Shown here one piece after another: positions 9,407 to 31,846 of a stretch of 64,000 nt of DNA. The stretch spans positions 43,064 to 107,063 of the forward strand of contig CAIMDB010000029.1 in NCBI GenBank assembly GCA_903839675.1. The letters are read 5' to 3'. Within the stretch, counting starts at the first letter, position 1; each line of letters opens with the position of its first letter. Source of the stretch: an uncultured Sphingomonadales bacterium (GTDB taxonomy: Bacteria > Pseudomonadota > Alphaproteobacteria > Sphingomonadales > Sphingomonadaceae). A program made the position numbers and the translations under genes. The notes beneath the pieces are model-generated. The model had not been told where the DNA came from and made no database searches. It saw nothing but the letters and a program-made list of their open reading frames with translations.

Positions 9407-9754
9407 CTACCCAGCCAACGCCTGCCCGACGACCTCCGACAAGCTTGCCGCAGTAAACGGCTTGGGCAAAAGCGGCCAGCCGCCAAAGGCTTCGGGGGGC
9501 GTGTCGCCAATGTCGCCGCTCATATAGATGACGCGCAGTTCCGGGCGTTCGGCGTGGACGCGGGCGATGAAATCCGGGCCGCGCATGCCCGGCATCAGCA
9601 CATCAGTGACGACGAGTTGAATGTCGGTGCGGCTGCTGCAAATGGTCAACGCCTCAGTGCCGTCGGAGGCCGACAGCACCTCATGCCCCATGGCGGAAAG
9701 TGCGCCCGCCGTGGCGGTGCGGATGCGGGCGTCGTCATCGACGACGAGGATCAT
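9407..9754 (-). CDS. Single-domain response regulator (receiver only)
   Basis: 115 residues covering one CheY-like receiver and nothing more. MILVVDDD supplies the acidic pocket, D51 in VVTDVLMPGM is the phosphoacceptor, and K98 in LLPKPF is the conserved lysine. The ATG at 9754 shares a base with the stop of serine palmitoyltransferase (TAATG), so translation is coupled to spt; an in-frame extension would run back inside spt. No histidine kinase lies nearby. The pairing suggests that the receiver senses or adjusts envelope lipid state, but the partner is unknown. Confidence 0.88.
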   Translation of the reverse strand: MILVVDDDARIRTATAGALSAMGHEVLSASDGTEALTICSSRTDIQLVVTDVLMPGMRGPDFIARVHAERPELRVIYMSGDIGDTPPEAFGGWPLLPKPFTAASLSEVVGQALAG

Positions 9755-10956
9755 TAGGAGATAATTCCTGTCGCCCGACCGGCGATCTCGAACCGCTTCA
9801 GAATATCCGAGACCTGTTCCGCCGTGTGTTCCGCACATAGCGAGCAACGCAGCAGCGTCATGCCCGCAGGCGTTGCCGGCGGACGGGCGAGGTTCACGTA
9901 CAGCCCGTTTTCGAGCAGCGTTGCCCACATCATCGCGCCGCGTTCGAGATCGGGCATGATGACGGCGATGATGGCTGACTGGGGTGTTTCGGTGCCGAGC
10001 TTGAAGCCAAGATCGCGCAGGCCCTTGTGCAGAGTCTTTGAGTTTTCCCAGAGATGCGCGCGCTTGTTGCTGCCGTGCATCAGCTTGCGGATCGACGTGG
10101 CCGAACTTGCCATCACGCTCGGCGGGAGGGCGGCTGTGAAGACATAAGGACGGCAGACGAGGCGCATCACTTCAAACTTCGGATGATTGGAGACGCAGAA
10201 GCCGCCGACGGTGCCGACGGACTTGCTGAACGTGCCGATGATAAAATCGACATCGTCAATGACGCCCTGTTCCTCAGCAACGCCGCGGCCATGTTCACCG
10301 ATAAAGCCCATCGAATGCGCTTCGTCGACCAGCACCATCGCGCCCGCTTCCTTGGAAACGCGGATCATCTCTTTCAAAGGAGCGACATCGCCGAGCATCG
10401 AATAGACGCCTTCCAGCACGACGAGCTTGCCCGCTTCAGGCGGCAGGCGCTTGAGGCGCTTTTCGAGTGCCTCAACGTCATTGTGGCGGAAGGCGACGAC
10501 TTCGGCATCGCCCATCTTGCAGCCATCATAGATGGAGGCATGGCTGTCGATGTCGAGGATGATGAAATCGCCCTTGCCAGCAATCGTCGAAATGATGCCG
10601 AGATTGGCCTGGTATCCGGTTGAGAACACCATGGCATGGTCCATGGCGTAGAATTCCTTCAGCGCTTCTTCGACATCGCGGTGGTCGCGGAAGGTGCCGT
10701 TGAGAACGCGGCTGCCGGTTGTGCCTGCGCCGAACTCATCAAACGCCTTCTTGCCGGCCGCGATCACGTCCGGATCGAACGTCATGCCCATATAGTTATA
10801 GGTGCCGAGCAGAATGGTCTCACGGCCATTGCAGACAGCGACGGTCGGGGACTTCACCTCATCCATCACAAGCGAGAAGGGATCACGCACGCCCGTGGCG
10901 AGCAGATTTTCCCGCTGCTGGATCAGAGGATCAAATTTCGAAAAAAGATCAGTCAT
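9754..10956 (-). CDS. spt: Serine palmitoyltransferase
   Basis: 400 residues. A PLP-dependent alpha-oxoamine synthase that condenses L-serine with a palmitoyl thioester to 3-ketosphinganine, the first step of sphingolipid synthesis. It aligns well from memory with Sphingomonas paucimobilis SPT: LLGTYNYMGMTFDPDVIAAG, DSHASIYDG (H139 stacks on PLP), VDEAHSMGF (D211), GTFSKSVGTVGG (PLP lysine K245) and ARPPATPAGMTLLRCS near the end. The ATG at 10956 has GGAAG about 10 bases upstream; an ATG nine bases earlier is too close. It is the second gene after the acyl carrier protein and is coupled to the receiver downstream. KBL/BioF relatives lack the ARPPATPAG segment in this form. Confidence 0.95.
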   Translation of the reverse strand: MTDLFSKFDPLIQQRENLLATGVRDPFSLVMDEVKSPTVAVCNGRETILLGTYNYMGMTFDPDVIAAGKKAFDEFGAGTTGSRVLNGTFRDHRDVEEALKEFYAMDHAMVFSTGYQANLGIISTIAGKGDFIILDIDSHASIYDGCKMGDAEVVAFRHNDVEALEKRLKRLPPEAGKLVVLEGVYSMLGDVAPLKEMIRVSKEAGAMVLVDEAHSMGFIGEHGRGVAEEQGVIDDVDFIIGTFSKSVGTVGGFCVSNHPKFEVMRLVCRPYVFTAALPPSVMASSATSIRKLMHGSNKRAHLWENSKTLHKGLRDLGFKLGTETPQSAIIAVIMPDLERGAMMWATLLENGLYVNLARPPATPAGMTLLRCSLCAEHTAEQVSDILKRFEIAGRATGIIS

Positions 10957-11074
10957 TTTTTTCATTCTTCCCGTTGCGTCGTGCCGACTTGGCCCCCGGC
11001 ACCTTGCCAACCAGACGCCCGTTCTGGCTGACCCGACCCCGCAGACACGCGTCGGGGCGACGGAAATTGATTAC

Positions 11075-11317
11075 TTAACTGCCCAGTTTGATCACGGCAT
11101 CCACAAGCTGCCCAACCGTTTCAATCTCGGCCTGCATGTTCATGGTGATGATGATGTCAAATTCGTCTTCAACCGCGGCCACGAAATCCATGACCGTCAG
11201 GCTGTCCCATTCCAGATCATGCTGGAATGTCGTTGCGTCGGACAGGTCCGCACCCTTTTTGTTAAAGGGTCCGATCAGCTCGGCAACCTTGTCAAATACT
11301 GTCTGGCGATCCGTCAT
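11075..11317 (-). CDS. Acyl carrier protein, probably dedicated to sphingolipid synthesis
   Basis: 80 residues. The phosphopantetheine site is WDSLTVMDF (S39), and the acidic four-helix ACP pattern is complete. It differs from housekeeping AcpP in length and sequence and lies 118 bases upstream of spt on the same strand. In Caulobacter and Sphingomonas a dedicated ACP beside spt supplies the acyl thioester to serine palmitoyltransferase, so the same role is inferred here. It is 126 bases downstream of fdxA, a gap with short hairpins, so a separate promoter is possible. Confidence 0.88.
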   Translation of the reverse strand: MTDRQTVFDKVAELIGPFNKKGADLSDATTFQHDLEWDSLTVMDFVAAVEDEFDIIITMNMQAEIETVGQLVDAVIKLGS

Positions 11318-11443
11318 GTGTCTTCCTTAACGCGTTGTCTGCCAATGCCAAACGATTGCGGCGCAAACGGGGCAGCACCCGGAGAACGTCGGTGCTCCGG
11401 GGCCACTTTCGGCGTCAATTCGTCGCAGAAAAGCAGGTGGAGC

Positions 11444-11785
11444 TTAGTCGCCCTTGCCGGGTTCGGCTGAGAAATACTTGTCGAACTTGCCGTCTTCGCC
11501 CTTATGGTCGTCGGCGTCGGCTGGGGTCTGGTCACCCTTGCGCGTCACATTGGGCCATTCGGCGGAATAGCTGTTGTTCAGTTCGAGCCACTTTTCCAGA
11601 CCGCTTTCGGTGTCGGGCAAGATGGCTTCCGCCGGGCATTCCGGCTCACACACGCCGCAATCGATGCATTCGTTCGGGTTGATGACGAGCATGTTCTCGC
11701 CTTCATAGAAGCAGTCGACGGGACAGACCTCCACGCAATCCATGTACTTGCACTTGATGCAGGCTTCGGTGACGACATAGGTCAT
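11444..11785 (-). CDS. fdxA: Seven-iron ferredoxin FdxA
   Basis: 113 residues. The cluster ligands are [14 protein letters not shown] near the N-terminus ([3Fe-4S] ligands plus one [4Fe-4S] cysteine) and [12 protein letters not shown] around residues 40-50, the pattern of FdxA-type 7Fe ferredoxins with a C-terminal extension. It is a small soluble electron carrier. It follows the S4 protein gene by 35 bases in the helicase-S4-fdxA order common in alphaproteobacteria. In many relatives I recall a carD gene next; here the sphingolipid ACP follows. Confidence 0.93.
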
Positions 11786-11820
11786 TGCGGGTCCTCCGGA
11801 ATGTGTAGTTTTGCGGTTCG

Positions 11821-12105
11821 TTAGATGGCGATAAGGGCGCCGTCAATCGGCTGTGGTGGGGCAATTTCCCGATAATGCACCCGCGCCTCATCTGCAGGGC
11901 CTCTCCTTTGGGGGAGGGCCTCCACCCGGATGACGTGGATAGCGCCATGGAGCGGGATGGTAATGACGCTGCCGGGACCGACATCGGTATGGGCGCGTTT
12001 CACATTCTGGCCATTAAGGCGGATGCGGCCTTCTCCCACAATTTGCTGCGCAAGCGTGCGGGTTTTGGTGAGCCGGGCGAAGAAGAGAAATTTATCGAGC
12101 CGCAT
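11821..12105 (-). CDS. S4-domain RNA-binding protein (Hsp15-like)
   Basis: 94 residues, nearly all S4 domain: [20 protein letters not shown] and then [20 protein letters not shown]. Hsp15 (HslR) of E. coli binds stalled 50S subunits carrying nascent chains, and this gene is the usual alphaproteobacterial version. It starts six bases after the helicase stop, so the two are co-transcribed and perhaps both act on RNA. Confidence 0.87.
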
Positions 12106-12111
12106 AAACTC

Positions 12112-14619
12112 CTATCTCTTTAATTGGCCAAGCACGGCGAAGGCCGCATTGACCGGGGTGGGGGCCTGGACACGCCGTGGGCGGCCGCGCCAGCGCCATT
12201 GGTTCGCCTGCATATTGCCCACAGGATGAAAGCCGATCGCCCGCATGATCCGGGCAAAGGTCTCGCTGCCGATGCCCAGCGACACAGCCATGGCCGGGTC
12301 GAGCATCGATGTCCGTTCCTTGCCGCGCGCATCGTGCGCCGCGCGGGCGATCCGCTCGACAAGGTCGATGCGCAACATCTGATCCCCAAAGCGGCGATAT
12401 CCGGCAAGGCGCGCGGCCTCAGCCAGCACAGGCGCCGGCTTGTCGAGCAGGCCAAGCCCGGCGAGCGGCAGCGGCGGCATCGACTGTCCTGCCCGGACAG
12501 CGGAAAGCGCCAGCCGCAGGCGGGTCGGCTCTGGCTTGAGCAGAACGGGAAGAAAGATGTCGAGCGCGCCAATGGTCACACCAAGGCGCTGGAGAAATTG
12601 CCGCTGGGCCCGGTCAAGCGATGCCAGCGCTTCATCGCTGGATGCGCGGTCGAGCAGGCCGCCATGTTCTGTCAGTTGGACAAGGATGCCCCGCAGGACA
12701 GGCGGTGTCTCCCGATCTGCCGCCACAGCCGAAATTTTGTTGAGCGGACCAAGTTTGCCGGTGACCATGCGGGCAACCCATGTCTCAAGCCGCGCTTCGA
12801 TCGCTGCGCGACTGGCCGGATCCACCCGCGACAAAGCGGGGCTCAAGAAGAGCCGCGGGGTGACAAGTGTTTTGCCGGGTTTGAACCGGGCCAGCTCAAC
12901 CCCTGCCCAGACGATGCGCACGGGGGTACCCGGCTCCGTCACCAAACTGAAGGCGCTGTCTGCGGCCTCAGCGACCTTATGCGCACGGCGGGCGAGTTCC
13001 TTTGGCAGGCGCAGTTCGGCGGCGGCCAGCAGCCGCTTATGGTCTTTGCCCCGCGCGGCGGCATCGGGGGCAAAGGTAAAGCCATTCAGCGTCCCGATCA
13101 TCTCCCCATCAACCAGAACTTCGCCTGCTTCATCGACCTGCACGTCGAGAAGGGCGGGATCATTGCTGACGGACTTCATCAGGATGGACGTCCGCCTGTC
13201 CACAAACCGCTCGGTCAGGCGGGCGTGAAGGGCATCGGACAGTTTGAGTTCCAGCTCGCGGGTCCGCTCCGCCCATGTGGGCGCGTCAATCAACCAGTCA
13301 GCCCGCTGGGCGACATAGGCCCAGATGCGGACTTCAGAGATGCGGGCGGCAAGTGTTTCGACATCGCCCTGCACGGTATCGAGCCGCGCGATTTGGGCGG
13401 CAAACCAGGGGCCGGGGATATGGCCTGATCCTTCGGACAGAAAACCGAAAATCTGGCTGACCATGCGAGAATGATGTTCTGCGCCCACCTTGCGGAAATC
13501 GGGCAGGCCGCAGGTGGCCCAGAGCTTTTGGACCATGCGGGGCCCGCGCGCGCGGTCGATCACCATCCGGTCGTTGGACAAGATGCGCAGCACGGTCAGG
13601 TCGATAGAGTCCGGCGCAGCCCGCAGCACGGGGTTGTCGGGCCGGACGCCCAAGGACTCCGTCAGTGCGTCGACCGAGCGGAAATCGAGATCGCTGTTGC
13701 GCCACATCAGGTGTTCGAGCGGCTTGAAGCGATGCTCCTCAATGCGCTCAATCTCAATGTCTGAGAATGCCGCTTCATCCGGCCCGCCAGACAGAACGCC
13801 AAAGGTCCCGTCGCGCTGGTGACGCCCGGCGCGGCCCGCAATCTGCGCCATTTCTGCCAGATGCAGCCGCCGCTGCCGCTTGCCGTCAAATTTGGTGAGG
13901 CTGGCAAAGGCGACATGGCCGACATCCATGTTCAGCCCCATGCCGACGGCATCCGTCGCAACCAGATAGTCGACTTCACCCGCCTGATACATGGCGACCT
14001 GCGCGTTGCGTGTGGCCGGCGACAGGGCGCCCATGACAACTGCCGCGCCGCCGCGCGTCCGCCGCAGCATTTCGGCGACGGCGTAGACATGCTCAGCCGA
14101 GAAGGCGACGATGGCGGTGCGCGGTGGCAGGCGGGACAGCTTCTTGCCGCCTGCGTATGTCAGCTGGGAAAAGCGGGGGCGGGTGATGATTTCCGCCTCA
14201 GGCAGCAGTGTGCGCACCAAGGGCTTCAGGCTTTCAGACCCGAGGATCATCGTTTCTTCGCGACCGCGGGCGCGCAGAAATCTGTCGGTAAACACATGGC
14301 CGCGTTCGGCATCAATGCCCAATTGCGCTTCATCCAGCGCCACAAAGGCGACGTCCCGGTCGGTCGGCATCGATTCCGCTGTACACAGCAGCCAGCGCGC
14401 GTCGGGGGGGAGGATACGCTCTTCGCCGGTGATCAGGCCGACATGCTTTGCGCCTTTGATGCGGACAACGCGGTCATACACTTCGCGTGCCAAAAGGCGC
14501 AAAGGGAAGCCCATGATGCCGCTGGAATGGGCGCATAGCCGCTCAACCGCGAGGTGCGTCTTTCCCGTATTGGTCGGCCCGAGAACGGCCGTGATCGCGG
14601 AACGCGCGCGTTGGCTCAT
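12112..14619 (-). CDS. SUV3-like DEAD/DEAH-type RNA helicase
   Basis: 835 residues. Walker A is GPTNTGKT (residues 14-21), as in mitochondrial SUV3 (GPTNSGKT). Motif II is the atypical DEAQ in FVALDEAQ, SUV3-like rather than DEAD. Motif VI is QIAGRAGRHQRDGTFG, and ATDAVGMGLNMDV is motif V. The long C-terminal part contains the SUV3-type helical region and an unannotated tail. The start at 14619 places the P-loop close to the N-terminus as in relatives; a longer in-frame start at 14679 is possible. Likely role is RNA unwinding in turnover, with the Hsp15-like gene downstream in the same operon. Confidence 0.9.
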   Translation of the reverse strand: MSQRARSAITAVLGPTNTGKTHLAVERLCAHSSGIMGFPLRLLAREVYDRVVRIKGAKHVGLITGEERILPPDARWLLCTAESMPTDRDVAFVALDEAQLGIDAERGHVFTDRFLRARGREETMILGSESLKPLVRTLLPEAEIITRPRFSQLTYAGGKKLSRLPPRTAIVAFSAEHVYAVAEMLRRTRGGAAVVMGALSPATRNAQVAMYQAGEVDYLVATDAVGMGLNMDVGHVAFASLTKFDGKRQRRLHLAEMAQIAGRAGRHQRDGTFGVLSGGPDEAAFSDIEIERIEEHRFKPLEHLMWRNSDLDFRSVDALTESLGVRPDNPVLRAAPDSIDLTVLRILSNDRMVIDRARGPRMVQKLWATCGLPDFRKVGAEHHSRMVSQIFGFLSEGSGHIPGPWFAAQIARLDTVQGDVETLAARISEVRIWAYVAQRADWLIDAPTWAERTRELELKLSDALHARLTERFVDRRTSILMKSVSNDPALLDVQVDEAGEVLVDGEMIGTLNGFTFAPDAAARGKDHKRLLAAAELRLPKELARRAHKVAEAADSAFSLVTEPGTPVRIVWAGVELARFKPGKTLVTPRLFLSPALSRVDPASRAAIEARLETWVARMVTGKLGPLNKISAVAADRETPPVLRGILVQLTEHGGLLDRASSDEALASLDRAQRQFLQRLGVTIGALDIFLPVLLKPEPTRLRLALSAVRAGQSMPPLPLAGLGLLDKPAPVLAEAARLAGYRRFGDQMLRIDLVERIARAAHDARGKERTSMLDPAMAVSLGIGSETFARIMRAIGFHPVGNMQANQWRWRGRPRRVQAPTPVNAAFAVLGQLKR

Positions 14620-14748
14620 CCCGATCAGATTGCCATGATCTTGCCGGCGCGCAAGGGCTAATCGACCTAGGTGGCCCAAAGGTCAGTTCAATTCTTCGGC
14701 AATTTGGCACGGATGGCCGCTGCACACCTGTTTTGCCCAAACATAAGT

Positions 14749-14778
14749 TTGACATTAACCATTGGCGTTTACAGGTAA
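14749..14778 (+). promoter_or_regulatory. Candidate sigma-70-type promoter for the M23 peptidase gene
   Basis: A consensus TTGACA at 14749-14754 is followed 18 bases later by AGGTAA at 14773-14778, about 37 bases before the TTG start codon. The -35 is perfect, the -10 weak. Nothing else notable is seen in the gap 14620-14814. Confidence 0.4.
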
Positions 14779-14814
14779 CGCAACGGGATCGCGGTCGGAA
14801 AGGCCAGAGCAAGC

Positions 14815-16317
14815 TTGTTTGAACGGAACGAACACGGTTTTGGCGCGTTTGGCGCGACGATGGCCCTGTCGATCGATCAGGCCTTGCCGGTCCCGCATGA
14901 TCTGACGACATGGTCCGGCCGTATCGACCACATCGTTGACCGTCTCCATCATCTGGATCTTGTACCTGATCTTGGTGCCGATATCGGCACGGGCCGCTGG
15001 TTCCGTGGGCTCGCCACTTGTCTGGCCCTGTGCGGCGCCACTTTGGCGTTTGCGCCGGGCATCCACCCTCTTGTCGGCCGCGCGCCCGCGCCTGTTGAAG
15101 GCCGTGCTTGGGAAGATAGCCGCGCACAGGCCATCGCGCCGCTGGCTTATGGCGGCAATACCGGCAAACGGATGGCGGCGAATGATCTGGTGACGCCCTT
15201 GGCCGACGCGCCGGAACGCCCGACCATCGAACTCACGACAACCATCGGACAAGGCGACGGCTTTGCCCGCGTGCTGGAACGCGCCGGTGTTGCCGCGGGA
15301 GAGGCCAACCGCGCCGCCCGGCTGGTGGCCTCGGTTGCGCCGCTGTCTGGCATTGAACCGGGGACGGTGATGCCCATTGTGCTCGGCCCCCGCTCCTCGC
15401 GCAGCGTCGCCCGTCCGCTGCAATCGCTGGATGTCCGTGCACGTTTTGATTTGAACGTCCGCATTTCAAATGTCGGCGGCAATCTCAAAATGGCCCAGAT
15501 GCCGATCAAGGTGGACAATACCCCGCTGCGGATCGTCGGCCGCGTGGGGGACAGTCTCTATCGCTCTGCGCGCGCGGCCGGTGTCTCGGCGGGTGTCGCC
15601 CAATCCTTTATCCGCGCCATTTCCAACAAGGTCGATTTTGACCGAGACCTCGCATCTGATGCGCGCTTCGACATGATTGTGGAGCATCAGCGCGCGGAAA
15701 CCGGCGAATCAAAAACCGGCAAGCTGATGTATATCGGCATCCATCGCGGCAATCGCGCGATCCGCATGATCCCTTGGACCATCGGCGGGCGGACCGACTG
15801 GTATGATGCCGCAGGCGTCGGCCAGCGCCGCGAAGGCATGGTGCGCCCGGTTGCGGCGGCGCGCATTTCATCCGGTTTCGGTATGCGCTTCCACCCGCTG
15901 CTCGGCTATTCGCGCTTCCACAAAGGCACGGACTATGCCGCGATGACCGGCACGCCCATCCGCGCTGTTACGGACGGCATTGTCACGCTGGCCGGATGGT
16001 CGGGGGGCTATGGCAATATGGTCAAGCTGTCGCATGCAGGCGGTTTGGGCACCGGCTATGCCCATATGAGCCGCATCGCCGTCCGCCCGGGCGCACGCGT
16101 GGTGCAGGGGCAGGTCATCGGCTATGTTGGCACCACTGGTCTTTCGACCGGGCCGCATCTCCATTTCGAAGTCTATCGCCATGGACAGGCCGTCAGCCTC
16201 AGTTCGGTGAACTTTGCCTCAGCCTCGCTGCTCTCGGGCAGGGAGTTGGAGGCGTTTCGTGCGCGGCTGCGCTCAATGTTGGCCATCCCGGTCTCCGGCG
16301 AAGGGCGCGATCTTTAG
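14815..16317 (+). CDS. M23-family (LytM) peptidoglycan metallopeptidase
   Basis: 500 residues starting at TTG; no ATG fits and MFERNEHGFG resembles sphingomonad relatives. A cytoplasmic segment of about 60 residues precedes one transmembrane helix (about 63-82), then an OapA/LysM-like region, then the M23 domain in the last 150 residues with SRFHKGTDYA and HLHFEV supplying zinc ligands. The protein is anchored in the inner membrane and probably cuts cross-links in the cell wall or activates amidases. Both zinc-binding segments are intact, so it is likely active. A second M23 protein is encoded at 25695-26876. Confidence 0.88.
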   Translation: MFERNEHGFGAFGATMALSIDQALPVPHDLTTWSGRIDHIVDRLHHLDLVPDLGADIGTGRWFRGLATCLALCGATLAFAPGIHPLVGRAPAPVEGRAWEDSRAQAIAPLAYGGNTGKRMAANDLVTPLADAPERPTIELTTTIGQGDGFARVLERAGVAAGEANRAARLVASVAPLSGIEPGTVMPIVLGPRSSRSVARPLQSLDVRARFDLNVRISNVGGNLKMAQMPIKVDNTPLRIVGRVGDSLYRSARAAGVSAGVAQSFIRAISNKVDFDRDLASDARFDMIVEHQRAETGESKTGKLMYIGIHRGNRAIRMIPWTIGGRTDWYDAAGVGQRREGMVRPVAAARISSGFGMRFHPLLGYSRFHKGTDYAAMTGTPIRAVTDGIVTLAGWSGGYGNMVKLSHAGGLGTGYAHMSRIAVRPGARVVQGQVIGYVGTTGLSTGPHLHFEVYRHGQAVSLSSVNFASASLLSGRELEAFRARLRSMLAIPVSGEGRDL

Positions 16318-16345
16318 TCCCCTTATTTTTCTGAATGTGTTGCGG

Positions 16346-16361
16346 TGTGATGGCCATCACA
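16346..16361. promoter_or_regulatory. Perfect CRP-type palindrome TGTGA-N6-TCACA
   Basis: TGTGATGGCCATCACA is a perfect 16-base palindrome matching the CRP consensus. It lies 29 bases after the M23 stop, between two convergent genes, where no protein-coding start needs it. A weak -10-like CAATAT lies at 16380-16385, which would place the palindrome centre near -40, the class II activator position. Site is read directly; the binding protein is inferred. Confidence 0.55.
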
Positions 16362-16392
16362 TTGCGAATCAGTTTCCACCAATATGGAGGTG

Positions 16393-16482
16393 AAGCGACC
16401 CAAGGCGCTTCCCTTTTCGGTCATTTAGGGGGCGCCCCCTCCTTGACGGCCCGGCAACTATCCCTGTCGGGCCGTCATTTTC
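16393..16482 (+). ncRNA. Candidate small RNA downstream of the CRP-type site
   Basis: This is inferred from layout: a CRP-type palindrome, a possible -10, then about 90 bases with no convincing reading frame ending in a Rho-independent terminator. A hairpin AGGGG-GCGC-CCCCT (16427-16440) is followed by CCTCC (16438-16442), complementary to the Shine-Dalgarno consensus, as in many alphaproteobacterial small RNAs. The alternative is that this is simply the 3' end and terminator of the M23 transcript. Confidence 0.3.
16445..16482 (+). terminator. Rho-independent terminator
   Basis: GACGGCCCG (16445-16453) pairs perfectly with CGGGCCGTC (16468-16476) around a 14-base loop, followed by ATTTTCT. 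It terminates plus-strand transcription after the M23 gene and the candidate small RNA. Confidence 0.75.
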
Positions 16483-16509
16483 TGACGGTCAACCGCATCG
16501 AAATACATC

Positions 16510-17379
16510 CTATCTTACCGCGCCCTGCCGCAACAATCGGGGCACGAGGAACAGCGCGGCCACCAAAGGAAAACGCCGCTGCCAGGGCTTGATCTCAATC
16601 TGCGTGCCGGCATGCCGGTTGATCTTCCAGGCGAGGTAATCAATCCCGCCTGAAAAGGTGAGGCTAGCCTTGGCGATGCGCAGGACGCTCGCCCGTTTTC
16701 CCCGCTTGCGCAGCTTTTGCCAGATGCGTTCCGCCGCCGGGCGGGTCATCGTTGTGGTCAGGGGGATGGCCGCGCCAAAGCGGGCATAGCGCGCCGGATC
16801 TGCCTCAACGATGGAGCCGGACCGCGTCTTCTTTTCCGCGCGCAATTCGCATTGATAGGTTCGGGCAAAGCCTTCCTGCCAGACGGCCATCGGATCATGC
16901 GAGGCCGCCACAGGCCGGGCGAGATCAAATAAGGTCGGCGCCGCCTTGGCGACCGCGTCGACGGCCCGGTCGCGTGCGGCTGCATCTTTCGACCAGACAA
17001 GGCGGGATGGCTGGGCAAAGCGCGCCCAGACGGAAACAGTGGTGGCGTCGGTGCTGTTGAGCGCTGCAAAGTCCGCTTCGCTCAGAACGGCATATTTCGC
17101 GGCAAGGCCATCTGCTGTGAACGGAAAGACGTTGGGTGGGATCAGCCGGTTGGCGGTGGCGAGCCAGCGCTTTTCATAAGCCGATGGATAGTCCGACACG
17201 ATCAGGTAGAAATCGAGCATCAGGCCATCTAGCCGCGCTTCGCGCAGGCAGGACCCGTAAAACAGCACGGCCCGCGCAGCATCGCCGTAAAGGGCTGCGA
17301 TGGCAGCTGCCATCTCTGTGACTTGGGGAAGGACAGGGTGCGCTAGTTCTTCTTCAACCAGCGCGCGCAGCGTCGTCAC
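16510..17379 (-). CDS. Tam41-like nucleotidyltransferase, possibly acting on a phospholipid or ceramide phosphate
   Basis: 289 residues with a GTG start that overlaps the kinase stop (GTGA). VLFYGSCLREARLDG followed by LMLDFYLIVSDYPSAYEKRW (catalytic Gly-Ser at 42-43, Asp at 56) matches the pattern of mitochondrial Tam41/MMP37, which makes CDP-diacylglycerol from phosphatidate and CTP. KYAVLSEADF and then ARFAQPSRLVW match the Tam41 KYGV(V/I)S and AGRLQKP segments. The C-terminus has a hydrophobic segment suited to membrane association. Coupling to a lipid kinase suggests that the kinase product is its substrate. In the Caulobacter ceramide-phosphoglycerate pathway I recall a similarly arranged set; identity with CpgA is a hypothesis. 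Confidence 0.7.
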   Translation of the reverse strand: MTTLRALVEEELAHPVLPQVTEMAAAIAALYGDAARAVLFYGSCLREARLDGLMLDFYLIVSDYPSAYEKRWLATANRLIPPNVFPFTADGLAAKYAVLSEADFAALNSTDATTVSVWARFAQPSRLVWSKDAAARDRAVDAVAKAAPTLFDLARPVAASHDPMAVWQEGFARTYQCELRAEKKTRSGSIVEADPARYARFGAAIPLTTTMTRPAAERIWQKLRKRGKRASVLRIAKASLTFSGGIDYLAWKINRHAGTQIEIKPWQRRFPLVAALFLVPRLLRQGAVR

Positions 17380-18344
17380 ACCGCCAACTTGAGGAAGGGA
17401 ATGGGCGGCGTGGAGCGGAGCACGATGGGCCGCCCTTCAATGGCGCTGAACGTTTCACCGTCCAAAATGACATTGGTGCCGCAGCTTTCGATGCGGATGA
17501 CGTCGCCTTGCTGAACATGCACGCCGCGCACCGGTTCCCGCCCGAGCTTCCCGCCAATCCCGGCCCAGATGGCGCGGATGAGCGCCGGGGCGGATTGTTC
17601 GATGGCCAACAGCTTCAATCCCATCGCGCCGGGCGCGCCAGTCCGGCTATTGAGCAGTAGCTTTTCCAAAGTTGTGACGATCAGGAAGGAGAAGCGGCGT
17701 GTCGCCTCTCCATCGCGGATGAGCGAGACGGAGACTGGGTTGGGGGCGGGCGGCAACAGGCGGCCGTGCAGGCCGGAAATCATCGCGAAGACAGCGGCAA
17801 AGCCCGCAATTACATGGCACAGCCCGTTGGGTAGGCCGAGCGGATAGAGCTTTTCGCGGCAGTATAAAATGGTGTCGGCAAGGCCCGCGCCGCCCAGAAA
17901 CATGCCAAGGACGGGGCGGTTGCTATGTTCGCCTTCGGTCAGCGAGATCAGCTCCCGTTGGACGACATGGTCATGTAAATCATGGCGTGCGGCCTCGACA
18001 ATCCGCTCCAGCATCCCGACAGGGTCGCCATCAGCGCCCAGATCAAGCGCGATCAGGTTCGTCTTGCCATTGGGGAGGACCGCGACCGGCGGCGGCGACG
18101 CGCCAAAATGTCCGCCATGGTGGAGTTCGGTCAGCGCCGCCTGAACCGTGCCATCACCGCCATTCACAATCAGAATACGCGGCTTGACCTGCGCAATGGA
18201 GGTGAGGGCAGCGCCAATCTGGCTCGCATCCTCAACCTCATAATGGAACACTTCGGGGTGCTGCGCGCAAAAGGAACGAATGCGCGGCAGGATGGCGCGG
18301 TTGCCCGTCGAATTCGGGTTCGAAAGAAGGGCAACAAGCGCCAT
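17376..18344 (-). CDS. Diacylglycerol/sphingosine-kinase-family lipid kinase (candidate ceramide kinase)
   Basis: 322 residues of the DAGK/LCB5 fold. The nucleotide loop is VNGGDGTVQAAL (GGDGT at 62-66). The usual LPxGTAN motif appears as LPNGKTNLIALDLG, a variation that sets it apart from YegS/DgkB. The C-terminal domain has VILDGETF, the conserved DGE. The family phosphorylates diacylglycerol, sphingosine or ceramide. It lies between a DUF2141 gene (two bases upstream) and the Tam41-like gene (4-base overlap), 6 kb from spt, and in Caulobacter the ceramide kinase CpgB belongs to this family. Ceramide as substrate is inferred from context. Confidence 0.82.
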   Translation of the reverse strand: MALVALLSNPNSTGNRAILPRIRSFCAQHPEVFHYEVEDASQIGAALTSIAQVKPRILIVNGGDGTVQAALTELHHGGHFGASPPPVAVLPNGKTNLIALDLGADGDPVGMLERIVEAARHDLHDHVVQRELISLTEGEHSNRPVLGMFLGGAGLADTILYCREKLYPLGLPNGLCHVIAGFAAVFAMISGLHGRLLPPAPNPVSVSLIRDGEATRRFSFLIVTTLEKLLLNSRTGAPGAMGLKLLAIEQSAPALIRAIWAGIGGKLGREPVRGVHVQQGDVIRIESCGTNVILDGETFSAIEGRPIVLRSTPPIPFLKLAV

Positions 18345-18346
18345 GC

Positions 18347-18838
18347 TTAGAGGTACCGCACCGTGATGGGCACAATGGTTGTTCCATTGGCGACCGAAAC
18401 CTGCACTTGGCTGGCCGGCGGCTTGCGTCCGAACAGGATCGACATCAGCGAGATCTTTGGGTTGCCCGATGCGCCGATGCCGTCGGACCGATCCGTATCG
18501 CCATTCTTGTTAATGTCATGGCGAACATCGACGGCGTAGGTGCCGGCCGCGCCCACGGGCACGCAAATCTCAATCGGGCCAGATGCCGGCACGTCATACT
18601 CAAAGCGCTTATGGGCGAACTTCTTGTTGAAATAAGTGTCGGGGTCGCCGGAGAAAGTGCGGACACGCACCGTCCCTGCCCGGCTCTTTAGGCCTGCCAC
18701 ACGGACGAGGATTGTTGGCTCGCGACCGCCTGAACACAAAGACGGGTTGGGGCCCAGCGCTTGCGCCGCGCCCAATCCGGGAAGGCCCAAAGTCGCTGTT
18801 GCCAGCACCAATAATCCACTACGCAACTTTGCCATCAT
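18347..18838 (-). CDS. DUF2141-domain exported protein
   Basis: 163 residues with a signal peptide (MMAKLRSGLLVLATATLGLPGLGAAQA). The mature part matches DUF2141: VRVAGLKSRAGTVRVRTFSG, then YAVDVRHDINKNGDTDR (an EF-like acidic loop) and GIGASGNPKISLM. The function of the family is unknown; the fold is probably a small periplasmic beta sandwich. It is the first gene of a tight three-gene unit with the lipid kinase and Tam41-like enzyme, which suggests a role in handling the lipid at the outer face of the inner membrane. It is divergent from lptF. Confidence 0.8.
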   Translation of the reverse strand: MMAKLRSGLLVLATATLGLPGLGAAQALGPNPSLCSGGREPTILVRVAGLKSRAGTVRVRTFSGDPDTYFNKKFAHKRFEYDVPASGPIEICVPVGAAGTYAVDVRHDINKNGDTDRSDGIGASGNPKISLMSILFGRKPPASQVQVSVANGTTIVPITVRYL

Positions 18839-18971
18839 TCTGACACCCTTGAAAAATGCATCGGGCCGTTTGCACTCACGGCCAGACTCACCTAATCCAC
18901 GTCGGCACGATCCATCTGGACTCCATTTGCGGCCAAATCATGGTCAGGACTCGACTGAATTCAGAAACACG

Positions 18972-20177
18972 ATGTTGACCTCCACTGACCGATACATCGC
19001 GCGATTGATCGCTTTGCCGCTGTTTTCGACGCTGATCATCGCTGCGATGCTGCTTGTGCTCGATAAGATGCTGCGGCTTTTTGATTTTGTGGCGCAGGAA
19101 GGTGGCCCCGTCAGCGTCGTCTGGCGGATGCTCGCCAATTTGCTGCCCGAATATCTGTCGCTCGGCATTCCGATTGGTTTGATGCTCGGCATCCTGCTCG
19201 CGTTCCGCAAGCTTGCCACGACGTCGGAACTTGATGTCTTCCGCGCTGTAGGGATGAGCTATGGACGGCTGCTGCGCGTGCCCTTCATGTTTGCCATCTT
19301 TCTCGCGCTCGTGAACCTCGCCATTGTCGGCTTTGTTCAGCCCTATTCCCGCTATGCCTATGAGGGGCTTCGCTTCGAACTGCGCTCCGGCGCGCTGGGT
19401 GCCTCTATCAAGGTTGGGGAATTTGCCCGCTTCGGCAAGCGGATGACGATGCGGATCGAGCGTTCGGAAAATGGCGGGCAAGATCTCTACGGCATTTTCG
19501 TGCGGGCGGTTTCAAAGGACAATACCTCGCTTTCAGTCACGGCGGAGCGCGGGACGTTCATGGCGACGGATGACCCCGACGTGATCATCCTGCGGCTGAA
19601 GAATGGCGTGCTGGTGCATGATGCATCAAATTATAAGCAACCGCGCGTGCTGACCTTTACCGCGCATGATCTTCCGATTGACCTTCCCAAGATTGAGGCC
19701 TTCCGCGGGCGCGGTGACAAGGATGGGGAACTCACAATTCCTGAGCTTGTCCGTGTCAGCCAGGACAAGAACACGCCGCTTGAACTGCGGTATCAAAGCC
19801 GCGCCAATTTCCATTTCCGGCTGGTGGAGGTGGCCATGATGCTGCTTTTGCCCCTGCTCGCCGTTGCTCTTGCCGTGCCGCCCAAACGCTCCTCCTCGGC
19901 GCTTGGGGTGTTCATTTCCATCGTGATGGTGGTCACCTATCATAAGATCAACGAATGGGCCGAAGGCATGGGCGCTTTGAACCTTGTTGATCCCTTATTT
20001 GCCCTATGGACACCGTTTGCGCTGTTCGCGGCCCTCATTTTCTGGATGTACTGGACGCTTGCCTATAAGATCGGCGGTCAGCCCATTGGGGCGTTGGAGA
20101 AGGGCTTTGCCGTCCTTGGAAAATCGATCCGCACTCTCTTCACCCGCAAGCAGCCGAAAGTGACGCCGACTTTATGA
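18972..20177 (+). CDS. lptF: LPS export ABC transporter permease LptF
   Basis: 401 residues. Three N-terminal transmembrane helices, a periplasmic beta-jellyroll of about 170 residues, then three more helices, the standard LptF/LptG layout. MLTSTDRYIARLIALPLFST is a typical LptF N-terminus; the ATG at 18972 is chosen over an upstream open frame that runs through the divergent DUF2141 gene. The stop overlaps the lptG start by ATGA. With LptB (not here) it would extract LPS or, in glycosphingolipid-bearing sphingomonads, possibly a glycosphingolipid. That alternative cargo is conjecture. Confidence 0.92.
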   Translation: MLTSTDRYIARLIALPLFSTLIIAAMLLVLDKMLRLFDFVAQEGGPVSVVWRMLANLLPEYLSLGIPIGLMLGILLAFRKLATTSELDVFRAVGMSYGRLLRVPFMFAIFLALVNLAIVGFVQPYSRYAYEGLRFELRSGALGASIKVGEFARFGKRMTMRIERSENGGQDLYGIFVRAVSKDNTSLSVTAERGTFMATDDPDVIILRLKNGVLVHDASNYKQPRVLTFTAHDLPIDLPKIEAFRGRGDKDGELTIPELVRVSQDKNTPLELRYQSRANFHFRLVEVAMMLLLPLLAVALAVPPKRSSSALGVFISIVMVVTYHKINEWAEGMGALNLVDPLFALWTPFALFAALIFWMYWTLAYKIGGQPIGALEKGFAVLGKSIRTLFTRKQPKVTPTL

Positions 20178-21268
20178 GCGCGCAGTTTTTCCCATCGCGG
20201 ACGATGTCCATTTATATGGGGCGGCTGTTCATTTTGCGCAGCGCCGCCGTTCTGGCGGCTCTGGTCCTCGTCTTGCAGGCGCTTGATCTGCTGGGCGAAT
20301 CTGACAAGATTCTGGCCGTTCCCGGAAACGACAATGGGGACATTTGGCACTATGTCTCCATGCGGATGCCACAGATCATCCAGCGCTTTCTGCCCTTTTC
20401 GGTCCTCTTGGGCACGCTCATCACGATGGTGACCCTGAACCAGAACAGCGAAGTGGTGTCGATGAAGGCGTCGGGGCTCTCCGCGCATCAGGTGCTTGCC
20501 CCATTGATCCTGGCAAGTATCGGGGTCGCCGCCATCGCGTTCGCGTTTAACGAGCGGATTGTGACGCGGGCCACGGCCACGCTGAACCGGTGGCAAAAGG
20601 TTGAATATGCCGCGATCCCGATGGACAGCCGGGTGCAATCGGACATCTGGGTGCGTGATGGCACGAACCTGATCAATGCCGGCAGCGTTGAGGGGCGCGG
20701 CATGGATACGCGTCTGGCGGATGTGACCATCTATGACCGCACCGATGGGGAATTGAGCGCCATCATCAAGGCAAAGACGGGGCGGCCGCTGGCGAGTGGC
20801 TGGCAGCTCGACGGGGCGAGCCGTTTCGATGTGAAGCGCGGCGTGCGGGACGATCTCGGCCAGATGACCACAGCCCCGGGCGTCCGTCCGGACCAGTTTA
20901 CGCTGGCCAGCGTCGATCCTGATGGTCTGTCCTTCCTCCAGCTGTGGAGCGCCATTGACGATCTGGAGGCTGCCGGCCGACCGACACGTTCGCTCAAGGC
21001 ATCGCTGTGGCACAAGATTTCCGGCCCCTTGTCGACCGTGTTGATGCCCTTGCTGGCGGCTGTCGCTGCGTTTGGTGTTGCCCGGTCAGGCAAATTGTTC
21101 GTCCGCGCCGTCATCGGGATGGCGCTGGGCTTTGCCTATTTCGTCGCGGACAATTTTGGCCTCGCGATGGGAGACTTGGGCGTCTACCCGCCGCTGCTGG
21201 CGGCCTGGGGCCCGTTCTTCCTGTTCCTGCTGATCGGCGAATATGTACTGGTGAAGACGGAGGAGTAG
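20174..21268 (+). CDS. lptG: LPS export ABC transporter permease LptG
   Basis: 364 residues with the same six-helix plus periplasmic jellyroll plan as LptF. The N-terminal IYMGRLFILRSAAVLAALVLVLQALD and the loop NQNSEVVSMKASGLSAHQV (coupling helix to LptB) are typical of LptG. Translational coupling with lptF through ATGA indicates equimolar production of the two permease halves. Confidence 0.92.
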   Translation: MSAQFFPSRTMSIYMGRLFILRSAAVLAALVLVLQALDLLGESDKILAVPGNDNGDIWHYVSMRMPQIIQRFLPFSVLLGTLITMVTLNQNSEVVSMKASGLSAHQVLAPLILASIGVAAIAFAFNERIVTRATATLNRWQKVEYAAIPMDSRVQSDIWVRDGTNLINAGSVEGRGMDTRLADVTIYDRTDGELSAIIKAKTGRPLASGWQLDGASRFDVKRGVRDDLGQMTTAPGVRPDQFTLASVDPDGLSFLQLWSAIDDLEAAGRPTRSLKASLWHKISGPLSTVLMPLLAAVAAFGVARSGKLFVRAVIGMALGFAYFVADNFGLAMGDLGVYPPLLAAWGPFFLFLLIGEYVLVKTEE

Positions 21269-21274
21269 CGGGCC

Positions 21275-22378
21275 TTATCGCCCGCGCTGAAAGGTGCTTT
21301 TTACCAACGTCGACAACAGCCCTGGGAGCCCGTCATAGCTTGCGGCATGATAGCGGGAGTTGGCTGGCAGCGCGGCGACCAAGCGGCGGTGCGCTTCGCC
21401 CAGTGAGTGATAGGGCAGCCCCGGCAAGAGATGATGTAACGCGTGATAGCGCAGGCCCACCGGCGCCCAGAGGGCAGGCAGGAAGGCGGGCGGCGGTACG
21501 TTGACGCTATCGAGATATTGGCCGGTCACGGTCATCACGTCGCCGTCATTTTCCCACAGATGGGCAACCAGCGTGCGGAACTGGTTGATGACGACCACTC
21601 CTGCATGAATGGCGAGCGCAATGAGGAAAGCGCGCAGCGGAACGATGCCAGTGGCCACCAGCGTAAGGAGCGTGATCGCCCATAGGCTCGCTGCGGTTTC
21701 CTGCACGATCCACATCCGGCGGAAATCGCCTTCGGGCATCCGCCTGCGATAGTCGGGATTGATCGACAGGCTCGAATAGCGCTCCACCACCGTGCGACGC
21801 AGGGCCGACGAGAGGAGCGACAAGGGCGCCAGCACGCCATAGCGAACCAGCACAGCAATCGGCCCGAGCGCTGACACGATCACGAACAGCGGCACCGTCC
21901 AAGGCTTCATCAGCGCCAATGGCAGATATTCAGGGTCTTCCTTTGTGCCATAACGCGTGCGGGCATGGTGCAGGCTGTGCACCCCTTCATACATGAAGGA
22001 CGGCACCAAAAGCGGCACGCCGATGAGCGCATTCCAAGCAAAACGGAAGCCGGGCAGCGCGGTCGGGCGGATATGCGTCAGTTCATGAATGAACAGGCCC
22101 GCGCGATACAGCGTCGCAATGGCGAGCGCGGCCCAACCGAGCAAGCCGCCGGTCGTGTCTGCCATGATGGCTATCGCTAGGGCGGCATAGCCCACAAGCG
22201 TGCAGGCCAGAAAATCGGGCCAATAATATTCGGGCCGTGCGGTCGAGAGGTCGCGTGTCAGTTCGGCAGCCGCGCGGATCATCGCGGCATCGTCGGGATG
22301 CTGCGAGAGCGGGATAGCTGCCGTCTTCTGCGCGCCGGTGGCGCCCGCTTCGTCAGCGGAAAGGAGCGAAGTTTTCAT
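21275..22378 (-). CDS. Membrane fatty acid desaturase-superfamily protein
   Basis: 367 residues. The three histidine boxes of the di-iron membrane desaturase/hydroxylase family are present: HELTH, HSLHH and HALHH, set between pairs of hydrophobic segments. The start at 22378 has GGA six bases upstream; longer reading extends into the divergent promoter region. It is divergent from the GNAT-like candidate ceramide synthase and convergent with lptG. Acyl-lipid, sphingoid-base or other lipid desaturation or hydroxylation are all possible; the neighbourhood favours a sphingolipid or lipid A acyl chain. Confidence 0.83.
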   Translation of the reverse strand: MKTSLLSADEAGATGAQKTAAIPLSQHPDDAAMIRAAAELTRDLSTARPEYYWPDFLACTLVGYAALAIAIMADTTGGLLGWAALAIATLYRAGLFIHELTHIRPTALPGFRFAWNALIGVPLLVPSFMYEGVHSLHHARTRYGTKEDPEYLPLALMKPWTVPLFVIVSALGPIAVLVRYGVLAPLSLLSSALRRTVVERYSSLSINPDYRRRMPEGDFRRMWIVQETAASLWAITLLTLVATGIVPLRAFLIALAIHAGVVVINQFRTLVAHLWENDGDVMTVTGQYLDSVNVPPPAFLPALWAPVGLRYHALHHLLPGLPYHSLGEAHRRLVAALPANSRYHAASYDGLPGLLSTLVKSTFQRGR

Positions 22379-22555
22379 ATTGATTCCAAATCTCTCGCGT
22401 CCCTTAGACGAGATCATCGTGGCAGGATGATGGCGGTAGGACGACCTGCCTGCATTGATCCCTTTCATAGGACCAGTTTCATATGGGCTGCCTTGACATC
22501 GTTGCAAGAAGGCGGGACTTGGCAGCCTTCATTGCGGGCAAAGGGAACCGAGGCA

Positions 22556-23713
22556 TTGACCCAGATCAGTTTGAGCGTCCGTCCGGTCAAAACCAAGGCG
22601 GATCGTGCTGCGTTCGTGGATCTGCCTTTCCGGCTTTACGCCAAGGACCCCAATTGGGTCCCGCCGCTGAAGGATGAGGTTTACGGACTAATCACGCCGG
22701 GCAAGAACCCCTGGTTTGAACATGGGGAGGCGCAACTCTTTCTGGCGGAACGCAGCGGGCAGGTTGTTGGCCGCATCACCGCGCACATTGATCAGCTTGC
22801 GCTCGCCCAGCCGCCTGAACAGGGCATGGGGCCGGGGGTCGGCTTTTGGGGCTTCTTGGAAGCCGAAGATGAAGAGGCCGGCAAGGCGCTGCTGGATGCG
22901 GCCGCAGACTGGCTCCGCACCAAGGGCATGAACCGCGCCATGGGGCCGTTGAGTTTCTCCTATTGGGATGAAATCGGCCTGCTTGTCGATGGGTTCAATA
23001 CGCCCCCTGTTGCCATGATGGGTTTCAACGCTGCGTCCTATCAGGCGTGGGTTGAAGCGGCTGGCTATGGCGGCGTGCAAGATCTTTTCACCTATGCCGT
23101 GCCCATTGCCGATGGCTTCCCCGAACTCGTCAATCGCCTTGTCGCGATGGGGGATAAGAGCGAGCGTATTCGCATCCGGCGCGTCGATAAGAGCCGCTTC
23201 GACGAAGAAGCCGCGCTCATCATCGGCATATTGAATGACGCATGGTCAGACAATTGGGGCTTCGTGCCGTTCACGCCGGCCGAAATTGCCTATGCGGGCA
23301 AGAAGCTGAAGCCGATTGTCTATGAAGACCTGATCCGTGTGGCGGAGGTGGATGGTGAGCCTGTCGCCTTCATGATGACGATCCCGGATCTCAATGAGAA
23401 GACCAAAGGCTTCAATGGAGCGCTCTTCCCGTTCAACTGGGCTAAGCTGCTATGGTGGCTGCGCGCGCCCAAGGTGCGCACGATGCGCGTCCCGCTAATG
23501 GGCGTGCTGAAGAAGCACCAGAGCTCACGCCTTGCCAGCCAGCTCGCGATGATGATGATCGAGTATATCCGGCGCGATGCCGTATCGAAGTTCGGTGCGA
23601 CACAGGGCGATTTCGGCTGGGTGCTGGCGTCCAATGGCCCGATGCGTTCAGTGGGCGAGGCCGTGGGCGGCACGGTCAACAAGGTCTATCGCGTCTACGA
23701 AAAGGCGATCTGA
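22556..23713 (+). CDS. GNAT-fold N-acyltransferase-like protein, candidate bacterial ceramide synthase
   Basis: 385 residues from a TTG start (MTQISLSVRPVKTKADRAAF), chosen because the family N-terminus begins there and AAGGG lies upstream; no ATG fits. FVDLPFRLYAKDPNWVPPLK is the signature of a two-lobed GNAT-like family often misannotated as dATP pyrophosphohydrolase. AQLFLAERSGQVVGRITAHI is the central GNAT strand pair. From memory the Caulobacter ceramide synthase bCerS (CC_1154) belongs to this family and adds the acyl chain to sphinganine or ketosphinganine. The spt, ACP and lipid kinase genes within 14 kb support that role. Confidence 0.72.
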   Translation: MTQISLSVRPVKTKADRAAFVDLPFRLYAKDPNWVPPLKDEVYGLITPGKNPWFEHGEAQLFLAERSGQVVGRITAHIDQLALAQPPEQGMGPGVGFWGFLEAEDEEAGKALLDAAADWLRTKGMNRAMGPLSFSYWDEIGLLVDGFNTPPVAMMGFNAASYQAWVEAAGYGGVQDLFTYAVPIADGFPELVNRLVAMGDKSERIRIRRVDKSRFDEEAALIIGILNDAWSDNWGFVPFTPAEIAYAGKKLKPIVYEDLIRVAEVDGEPVAFMMTIPDLNEKTKGFNGALFPFNWAKLLWWLRAPKVRTMRVPLMGVLKKHQSSRLASQLAMMMIEYIRRDAVSKFGATQGDFGWVLASNGPMRSVGEAVGGTVNKVYRVYEKAI

Positions 23714-25543: not shown

Positions 25544-25606
25544 GAGGTACAGATAGGCGCGACGGGCGTTCGGGGCAAGGCGCGCCACCTGCCGATGTAG
25601 GTACCA

Positions 25607-25668
25607 TTCCCGCGAAAGCGGAAATCCAAGGGCCGGTAGAGAGACTGGATCCCCGCTTTCGCGGGGAT
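25607..25668. repeat. Inverted pair of CCGCGAAAGCGG palindromic elements
   Basis: ATCCCCGC-TTTC-GCGGGGAT at 25649-25668 is a perfect palindrome. A diverged copy of its reverse complement (TTCCCGCGAAAGCGGAAATC) begins at 25607, so the two form a larger hairpin. I recall this GATCCCCGCTTTCGCGGGGATGACA type as abundant in sphingomonad genomes. It lies downstream of the M23 peptidase stop and upstream of erpA on the minus strand, and could end the former transcript. Confidence 0.8.
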
Positions 25669-25694
25669 GACAGAAGGGGAGTGACGGTTAAGTC

Positions 25695-28962: not shown

Positions 28963-28964
28963 CA

Positions 28965-31827: not shown

Positions 31828-31846
31828 TATTTGGTCCCAACCCAGC

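What the first reader, a model, noticed from the sequence alone, without database searches (positions are those of the whole stretch)
9407..23713. Sphingolipid neighbourhood dispersed among envelope genes
Within 14 kb lie spt, its likely dedicated ACP, a DAGK/LCB5-family kinase with DUF2141 and Tam41-like partners, a membrane desaturase and a GNAT-like protein resembling bCerS. lptFG, the export permeases, sit between them. Seen: the motifs and gene order. Known: spt makes ketosphinganine; relatives of the other genes act on ceramide in Caulobacter (from memory). Inferred: the region makes and decorates a ceramide. The Caulobacter-type ceramide reductase and acyl-ACP synthetase are not in the window.
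Basis: partly seen in the sequence, partly recalled or inferred. Interest (0 to 1): 0.75.

Follow-up and report, generated by a model that had tools for sequence, protein, structure and literature searches.

The report
LPS-export permease repurposed for sphingolipids
In a bacterium whose draft genome shows no lpxC, a key gene for making lipopolysaccharide, the only LptF-LptG lipid-export permease pair sits inside a gene cluster predicted to make ceramide lipids, so the machine that normally carries lipopolysaccharide to the cell surface likely carries sphingolipids here.

Summary
In detail: spt, acpR, a CpgB-like kinase gene, a Tam41-fold CpgC-like gene, DUF2141, lptF, lptG, a desaturase and a tandem-GNAT gene (predicted ceramide synthase) lie within 14 kb. 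CerR and AasR homologues are elsewhere in the genome. The cluster kind is known from Caulobacter CC_1152-CC_1168; PMC11324152 proposes, untested, that its second LptF/G copies move phosphosphingolipids.

This draft genome has one lptFG pair and no LpxC match. Of 118 genomes of its order (taken to be Sphingomonadales), 0 have LpxC, 116 have LptF/G, 118 have LptD. In 30 chosen alphaproteobacteria outside it, a sphingolipid-type lptFG pair is in 21 of 21 with the cluster and 0 of 9 without; an LPS-type pair is in 18 of 18 with LpxC and 0 of 12 without. The order's sampled pairs group with the sphingolipid type and lie within 4 kb of the cerS-like gene in 18 of 20 loci.

Most likely the Lpt machine exports sphingolipid here. 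Substrate and transport are untested.

The parts
9754..10965 (-). spt, serine palmitoyltransferase
   Evidence: NF047603 806 bits, cut-off 670; 700 bits to PDB 2x8u, 629 to 2jg2; ATG start
11075..11317 (-). acpR, acyl carrier protein next to spt
   Evidence: PP-binding PF00550 38 bits; DSL motif at residue 38; an acpR relative is beside spt in the 14 of 20 sampled loci of the order that hold spt
16510..17379 (-). cpgC-like gene, Tam41 fold, predicted CTP:ceramide-1-phosphate cytidylyltransferase
17376..18344 (-). cpgB-like predicted ceramide kinase
   Evidence: DAGK_cat 51.5 bits; GGDG at residue 62, no CxxxCxxC, as reported for CpgB (PMC10331486)
18347..18838 (-). DUF2141 protein, divergent from lptF
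   Evidence: PF09912 55.8 bits; relative in 9 of 20 sampled loci of the order
18972..20177 (+). lptF, sphingolipid type
   Evidence: TIGR04407 231 bits, cut-off 230; tree and profiles
20174..21268 (+). lptG, sphingolipid type
   Evidence: TIGR04408 306 bits, cut-off 240; tree and profiles
21275..22378 (-). membrane desaturase/hydroxylase, predicted ceramide-tailoring enzyme
   Evidence: PF00487 88 bits; HELTH, HSLHH, HALHH boxes; relative beside lptG and the cerS-like gene in 9 of 20 sampled loci of the order
22556..23713 (+). cerS-like tandem GNAT, predicted ceramide synthase

Best explanation
The window holds a sphingolipid gene cluster (spt, acpR and genes predicted to encode a ceramide kinase, a Tam41-fold cytidylyltransferase, a ceramide-tailoring desaturase and a ceramide synthase) wrapped around the genome's only lptFG pair, which likely exports the sphingolipid to the outer membrane in place of lipopolysaccharide. 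Proposed order: AasR (elsewhere in the genome) loads an acyl chain on AcpR; Spt joins it to serine; CerS adds the second acyl chain; CerR (elsewhere) reduces the ketone; the desaturase tailors the chain; the kinase makes ceramide 1-phosphate; the Tam41-like enzyme would make CDP-ceramide for head-group transfer. LptF/LptG with LptB would then pull the lipid from the inner membrane and push it along LptC-LptA-LptD. Shown by calls: gene identity at family or fold level, a single lptFG pair, no LpxC match, presence of LptD, LptA, LptB and a weakly matching LptC, the two LptFG lineages and their co-occurrence pattern. Inferred: every substrate, the head group, and transport itself.
For: (1) Presence: in 118 genomes of the window's order LpxC 0, LptF/G 116, LptD 118. 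G000 has two LptF/G matches, both in the window. (2) Thirty chosen alphaproteobacteria outside the order: sphingolipid-type lptF and lptG in 21 of 21 with the cluster and 0 of 9 without; LPS-type in 18 of 18 with LpxC and 0 of 12 without (Fisher 7e-8 and 1e-8, not corrected for kinship). (3) Trees: 42 sphingolipid-type LptF rows, support 92/99; 16 LPS-type rows, 100/100; holding the order's LptF with the LPS type is rejected, p-AU 0.02 (that alternative was named after the tree was seen). LptG: 41 sphingolipid-type rows split from LPS type plus E. coli, 97/92. (4) Synteny: lptG midpoint 1.1-3.7 kb from the cerS-like gene in 18 of 20 sampled loci of the order, also in five where spt and cpgB/C are not within the fetched 20 kb. 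(5) lptC-like, lptA, lptB and rpoN form one row on C35. (6) Against contacts seen by cryo-EM (PMC6744409, Shigella proteins), the window's LptG has D, Q, N, Q and D at K34, K62, R133, R136 and K40 (lipid A phosphate contacts) and its LptF has E at K317, while LptF R33 and the ATP-coupling arginines LptF R292 and LptG R301 are kept. (7) PMC11087976 and PMC11324152 both say the sphingolipid transporter is not known; the latter proposes LptC2/F2/G2.
Against: No chemistry or transport was measured. LPS-type alphaproteobacterial LptG also mostly lacks basic residues at K34, K62, R133 and R136, so of the listed LptG contacts only K40/K41 part the two types (R in 14 and 16 of 16 LPS-type; K/R in 0% and 27% of 41 sphingolipid-type), and K40E/K41E is tolerated in E. 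coli (PMC5548808). E. coli LptF/G score higher against the sphingolipid-type profiles (147/207 bits) than the LPS-type ones (112/130), so root and direction of specialisation are open. Support for the sphingolipid-type LptF side is 92, under 95. 13 of 118 genomes of the order have 3-5 LptF/G matches, 2 have none. G018, without cluster, has a second, divergent pair of neither type. L188 lacks the cerS-like gene within 20 kb; L193 ends before it. 38 of 118 genomes of the order have no CpgC match, so the cargo cannot always be a phosphosphingolipid. Pfam LptC found nothing in G000; the LptC-like ORF scores 22.7 bits and LptA 59 bits with NCBIfam, both below cut-off, though LptA passes its Pfam cut-off.
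Confidence: 0.72

Rival explanations
1. lptFG sit in the cluster by inherited gene order only; sphingolipids reach the outer membrane by another carrier (for example an MCE/Mla-type system), and LptFG-LptD moves some other lipid.
For: Transport was never measured; LptD and LptA could serve other lipids. Long-lived synteny can outlast function.
Against: Apart from the extra odd pair of G018, pair types follow LpxC and the ceramide cluster separately in 30 of 30 genomes examined; lptFG stay beside the cerS-like gene where spt and cpgB/C are not within the fetched 20 kb (L183, L184, L185, L187, L191).
Confidence: 0.15
2. The pair is an ordinary LPS exporter left over from, or still serving, lipid A.
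For: Pfam and NCBIfam name both proteins LPS export permeases; E. coli LptF/G score better with the sphingolipid-type profiles than with the LPS-type ones.
Against: No LpxC match in this genome and 0 of 118 in the order, while 4 of 14 control genomes ring, E. coli and Caulobacter among them; the AU test rejects grouping with LPS-type LptF. LpxC was the only lipid A marker tested.
Confidence: 0.06
3. The DAGK and Tam41-like pair acts on diacylglycerol and phosphatidic acid (a glycerophospholipid salvage pair), not on ceramide.
For: Purified Caulobacter CpgB also phosphorylates diacylglycerol in vitro (PMC10331486); solved Tam41 proteins are CDP-DAG synthases (titles).
Against: The two genes neighbour spt, lptFG or the cerS-like gene in loci of many families. 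In Caulobacter, CC_1160 and CC_1161 are needed for ceramide phosphoglycerate (PMC11324152) and cpgB loss leaves PA unchanged (PMC10331486).
Confidence: 0.12

Closest known systems
Caulobacter crescentus CC_1152-CC_1168 phosphosphingolipid cluster (PMC11324152)
   Same: spt, acpR, ceramide kinase, CpgC, LptF/LptG copies and CerS in one region.
   Different: Caulobacter has LpxC (control) and the cluster's LptF/G are second copies; here one pair and no LpxC match. CerR and AasR relatives are unlinked, and no relative of the L034 CDP-alcohol transferases or metallophosphatase is in the window. A PF00487 desaturase lies between lptG and the cerS-like gene.
Sphingomonas wittichii loci Swit_3897-3908 (PMC9386255, PMC11324152)
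   Same: epi, acpR, spt and the CC_1154 homologue carry nearby locus numbers; aasR is distant.
   Different: PMC11324152 reports the S. wittichii orthologues in 6 distant regions; which of them hold lptFG and cpgB/C I did not see. Here cpgB/C, lptFG, spt and cerS share 14 kb and the CerR relative is on another contig.
Canonical LptB2FG LPS exporter (PMC6744409, PMC5548808)
   Same: Pfam LptF_LptG family; LptB, LptA, LptD and LptC-like genes in the genome; ATP-coupling arginines.
   Different: No LpxC match; separate LptF/G lineage; most lipid A phosphate contacts replaced.
Tam41 CDP-DAG synthase (7ecd, 6ig2, 6ig4)
   Same: Predicted fold of the 289-aa protein; invariant FYGSCL and LDFY stretches that I read as a nucleotidyltransferase motif (recalled).
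   Different: No sequence match to any PDB chain; predicted lipid substrate is ceramide 1-phosphate.

Membership tests
Rhodobacterial ceramide synthesis set (aasR, acpR, spt, cerR, cerS) | spt of the alphaproteobacterial type beside a specialised acpR | tested here: met
   NF047603 806 bits; acpR about 110 bp upstream of spt
Rhodobacterial ceramide synthesis set (aasR, acpR, spt, cerR, cerS) | aasR and cerR in the genome | tested here: met
   G000 C28: AasR-like 53% over 571 aa, CerR-like 41% over 304 aa; queries were the L035 cluster proteins, whose names I inferred from domain and place
Rhodobacterial ceramide synthesis set (aasR, acpR, spt, cerR, cerS) | cerS orthologous to CC_1154 | tested here: inconclusive
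   35-44% to the GNAT near lptG in clusters outside the order, tandem GNAT fold; CC_1154 itself was not obtained
CpgB bacterial ceramide kinase | DAGK_cat with GGDG and no CxxxCxxC | tested here: met
   criteria from PMC10331486
CpgB bacterial ceramide kinase | phosphorylates ceramide | not testable with these tools
   needs an enzyme assay
CPG2 pathway of Caulobacter | CpgA-like (CDP-alcohol transferase) and CC_1158-like phosphoesterase genes | tested here: inconclusive
   No tblastn hit of the L034 proteins in the window and six other G000 stretches, nor in 20 loci of the order; whole genome not searched
Tam41 | Tam41 fold | tested here: met
Canonical LPS-exporting LptFG | member of the LptF_LptG protein family | tested here: met
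Canonical LPS-exporting LptFG | host makes lipid A (LpxC as marker) | tested here: not met
   no LpxC match in G000 (96% complete draft), 0 of 118 in the order
Canonical LPS-exporting LptFG | groups with LptFG of LpxC-bearing alphaproteobacteria without the cluster | tested here: not met
Sphingolipid-type LptF2G2 (CC_1156/CC_1155 kind) | groups with cluster-linked LptFG | tested here: met
   42-row LptF and 41-row LptG groups hold the window; CC_1155/CC_1156 themselves were not in the tree
Sphingolipid-type LptF2G2 (CC_1156/CC_1155 kind) | moves sphingolipid | not testable with these tools
   PMC11324152 and PMC11087976 say the transporter is not known

The most novel reading that the evidence does not exclude
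Alphaproteobacteria have two substrate-specific LptFG lineages, one for LPS and one for sphingolipids, and copy number reads out the outer leaflet: both pairs when both lipids are made, one when one is. In the Sphingomonadales and several other lineages the whole Lpt bridge was handed over to sphingolipids when lipid A was lost.
Probability: 0.6. Interest if true: 0.82.

Novelty: new variant of a known kind. Interest (0 to 1): 0.62.

Why it matters
How bacterial sphingolipids cross to the outer membrane is an open question in print (PMC11324152, PMC11087976). Lineages without LpxC that keep an Lpt bridge with a sphingolipid-type permease are a natural experiment pointing at the carrier, and give one gene pair and clear predictions to test. 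It would widen the Lpt machine from an LPS-only device to a family with several lipid cargoes, and offer a genome marker for outer-leaflet chemistry.

Tried and rejected
Tried without result: a named Caulobacter locus - the one genome-contig scan used a CpgB that proved to be Dongia's and returned 8 loci, Dongia and relatives. PDB sequence search with the CerS-like protein and the CpgC alignment: no hits. Pfam LptC in G000: none. Protein-database names for the 120 listed relatives each of CpgC and CerS: none, 'hypothetical' or N-acetyltransferase. Literature on Lpt in LPS-less sphingomonads: the listings gave only PMC11324152 on the point; the library lacks most subscription papers and all preprints. 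PMC10883770 (passages) proved beside the point; PMC11762602 (passages) reports Rhodothalassium salexigens as lacking LPS and holding dihydroceramides, not followed up.

Considered and dropped: lptFG as relic LPS exporter; DUF2141 as a fixed part (9 of 20 loci); helicase and ferredoxin as parts (2 of 20 loci).

Rows dropped and choices made: of the 49 genomes with a match, one is the window's own; 21 with cluster genes beside a CpgB match went into the 30-genome comparison. Left out were G105, G155, G078 and G191, whose match has no cluster neighbours (for the loci read), others with neighbours such as G170, G220, G231, G021 and G213, and the weak partial matches. The 9 comparison genomes were picked by me: five with no match and four with weak partial CpgB matches. 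G018's two pairs (L175, L176) were left out of the careful trees because of long branches; in the quick tree L175 fell with the LPS type, L176 outside both. L167 (G193) was moved to the cluster type after its profile scores were seen; its 8.7-kb contig is not joined to G193's cpgB contig. L170 is cut by a contig end. In G023 and G041 lptF and lptG lie apart. Only 20 loci plus the window were typed within the order.
Full report

IS IT A CLUSTER. With the window's kinase as query, 49 of 241 alphaproteobacterial genomes, its own included, matched at E 0.001. In 23 of the 29 other loci that came with that search, of 3-4 kb or less, the Tam41-like gene is beside the kinase gene. Of 20 wider loci outside the order (several cut by contig ends), lptF is in 20, kinase in 19, Tam41-like in 18, GNAT in 17 and spt in 12. 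CerR and AasR, named by me from domain and place in one such cluster (L035), find relatives in G000 on contig C28, 41% and 53% identical. So the five ceramide genes described in PMC9386255 (passages and one section read) and PMC11324152 (parts 1-5 of 9 and passages read) have counterparts here, three of them in the window.

THE PERMEASES. PMC11324152 notes that Caulobacter's cluster holds second copies of LptF, LptG and LptC and suggests, without testing, that they move phosphosphingolipids; it says the route is not known. PMC11087976 (abstract and two sections read) also reports no known flippase or transporter. In the window lptFG are the only LptF/G matches of the genome. In 118 genomes of the order LpxC is found in 0 (4 of 14 controls ring, E. 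coli and Caulobacter among them), LptF/G in 116 (exactly two matches in 103, three to five in 13, none in 2) and LptD in 118. G000 also has lptC-like, lptA, lptB and rpoN in a row; LptC is weak (22.7 bits, under its cut-off; no Pfam hit).

I then took 30 genomes outside the order: 21 with the cluster and 9 without (choice told under Tried and rejected). LptF/G matches and LpxC were counted and the LptF and LptG proteins assigned to a type by profiles made from the tree groups. Sphingolipid type: 21 of 21 with cluster, 0 of 9 without. LPS type: 18 of 18 with LpxC, 0 of 12 without. The nine genomes with both cluster and LpxC have both. The profiles were trained on most of these sequences; loci held out of training (L209-L211, L217-L220) fall just as cleanly. 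Fisher values are 1e-8 and 7e-8 but the genomes are related; on the sphingolipid-type LptF tree LpxC state needs at least 2 changes, 4 if it can only be lost (my reading of the tree). One exception: G018 has a second, very divergent pair of neither type.

TREES. LptF, 59 rows: 16 LPS-type rows stand apart at 100/100, 42 sphingolipid-type rows at 92/99, E. coli between. Holding the order's rows with the LPS type costs 24.6 log units, p-AU 0.0198; the alternative was named after the tree was seen, and the test was run for LptF only. LptG, 58 rows: LPS type plus E. coli against 41 sphingolipid-type rows, 97/92, but the order's rows and the other cluster rows meet the LPS branch at nearly one point (branch 0.004), so their sisterhood is not resolved there. 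E. coli proteins score higher with the sphingolipid-type profiles, so I do not claim which type is older.

SYNTENY. In 20 loci of the order, the cerS-like gene lies 1.1-3.7 kb (midpoints) from lptG in 18; L193 is cut by a contig end and L188 lacks it. In L183, L184, L185, L187 and L191 no spt, cpgB or cpgC relative is in the fetched 20 kb, yet lptFG and cerS hold together. 38 of 118 genomes of the order have no CpgC match at all. So the permeases follow the ceramide backbone gene rather than the phospho-head-group genes, which fits a cargo that may be a phospho- or a glycosphingolipid.

RESIDUES. PMC6744409 (passages read) lists LPS contacts in Shigella LptB2FG. By alignment the window differs at LptG K34 (D), K62 (Q), R133 (N), R136 (Q) and K40 (D), and at LptF K317 (E) and K322 (L); it keeps LptF R33 and R263 and LptG K41, and the ATP-coupling arginines LptF R292 and LptG R301. 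PMC5548808 (passages) reports that LptG K40E/K41E is tolerated. LPS-type alphaproteobacterial LptG also mostly lacks basic residues at K34, K62, R133 and R136, so this is weak support.

MECHANISM. See Best explanation. Directly shown: genes, families, predicted folds, counts, trees, order. Inferred: substrates, head group, direction of transport. The head group here is unsure: no relative of the L034 CDP-alcohol transferases or metallophosphatase was found in the window or the six other stretches examined.

NOVELTY. The gene cluster is a known kind. What I did not find in print is that LpxC-less lineages keep the sphingolipid-type pair alone and LpxC-bearing lineages without the cluster the other alone. 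I rate it a new variant of a known kind.

Noticed in passing
window 21275-22378; L185, L194, L197-L199 and clusters outside the order: Near lptG and the cerS-like gene there is a PF00487 desaturase in 9 of 12 loci of the window's family, but a PF04116 FA_hydroxylase in 5 of 20 loci of the order and 18 of 20 outside it (L046 has both): possibly a swap of ceramide-tailoring enzymes.
   Followed up: partly
LptF of LPS-type alphaproteobacteria (L161-L180): The ATP-coupling arginine LptF R292, whose loss PMC6744409 reports as lethal, is basic in 95% of 42 sphingolipid-type LptF but in 6% of the 16 LPS-type ones.
   Followed up: no
L175, L176 (G018): A genome without the ceramide cluster has a second LptFG pair that fits neither type (62 and 80 bits to the sphingolipid-type profiles): perhaps a third LptFG lineage.
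   Followed up: no
L217 and L220 (G284): One genome of the order has two lptFG pairs, both of sphingolipid type.
   Followed up: partly
window 18347-18838; L190: A DUF2141 gene stays beside lptF in L190, from a genome without a CpgC match, so it may go with the permease rather than the kinase.
   Followed up: partly
window 9302 and 9361; 31854 and 31884: Inverted copies of a CTGAGCCTGTCGAAG-type repeat, one pair just beyond the response regulator next to spt.
   Followed up: no
window 24447-32678: Genes scanned downstream are an Exo_endo_phos protein, M23 peptidase, DUF455, TauE, AhpC, GlnE and TatC; no CerR, AasR, flippase, hydroxylase, CDP-alcohol transferase or metallophosphatase relative anywhere in the window.
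   Followed up: partly
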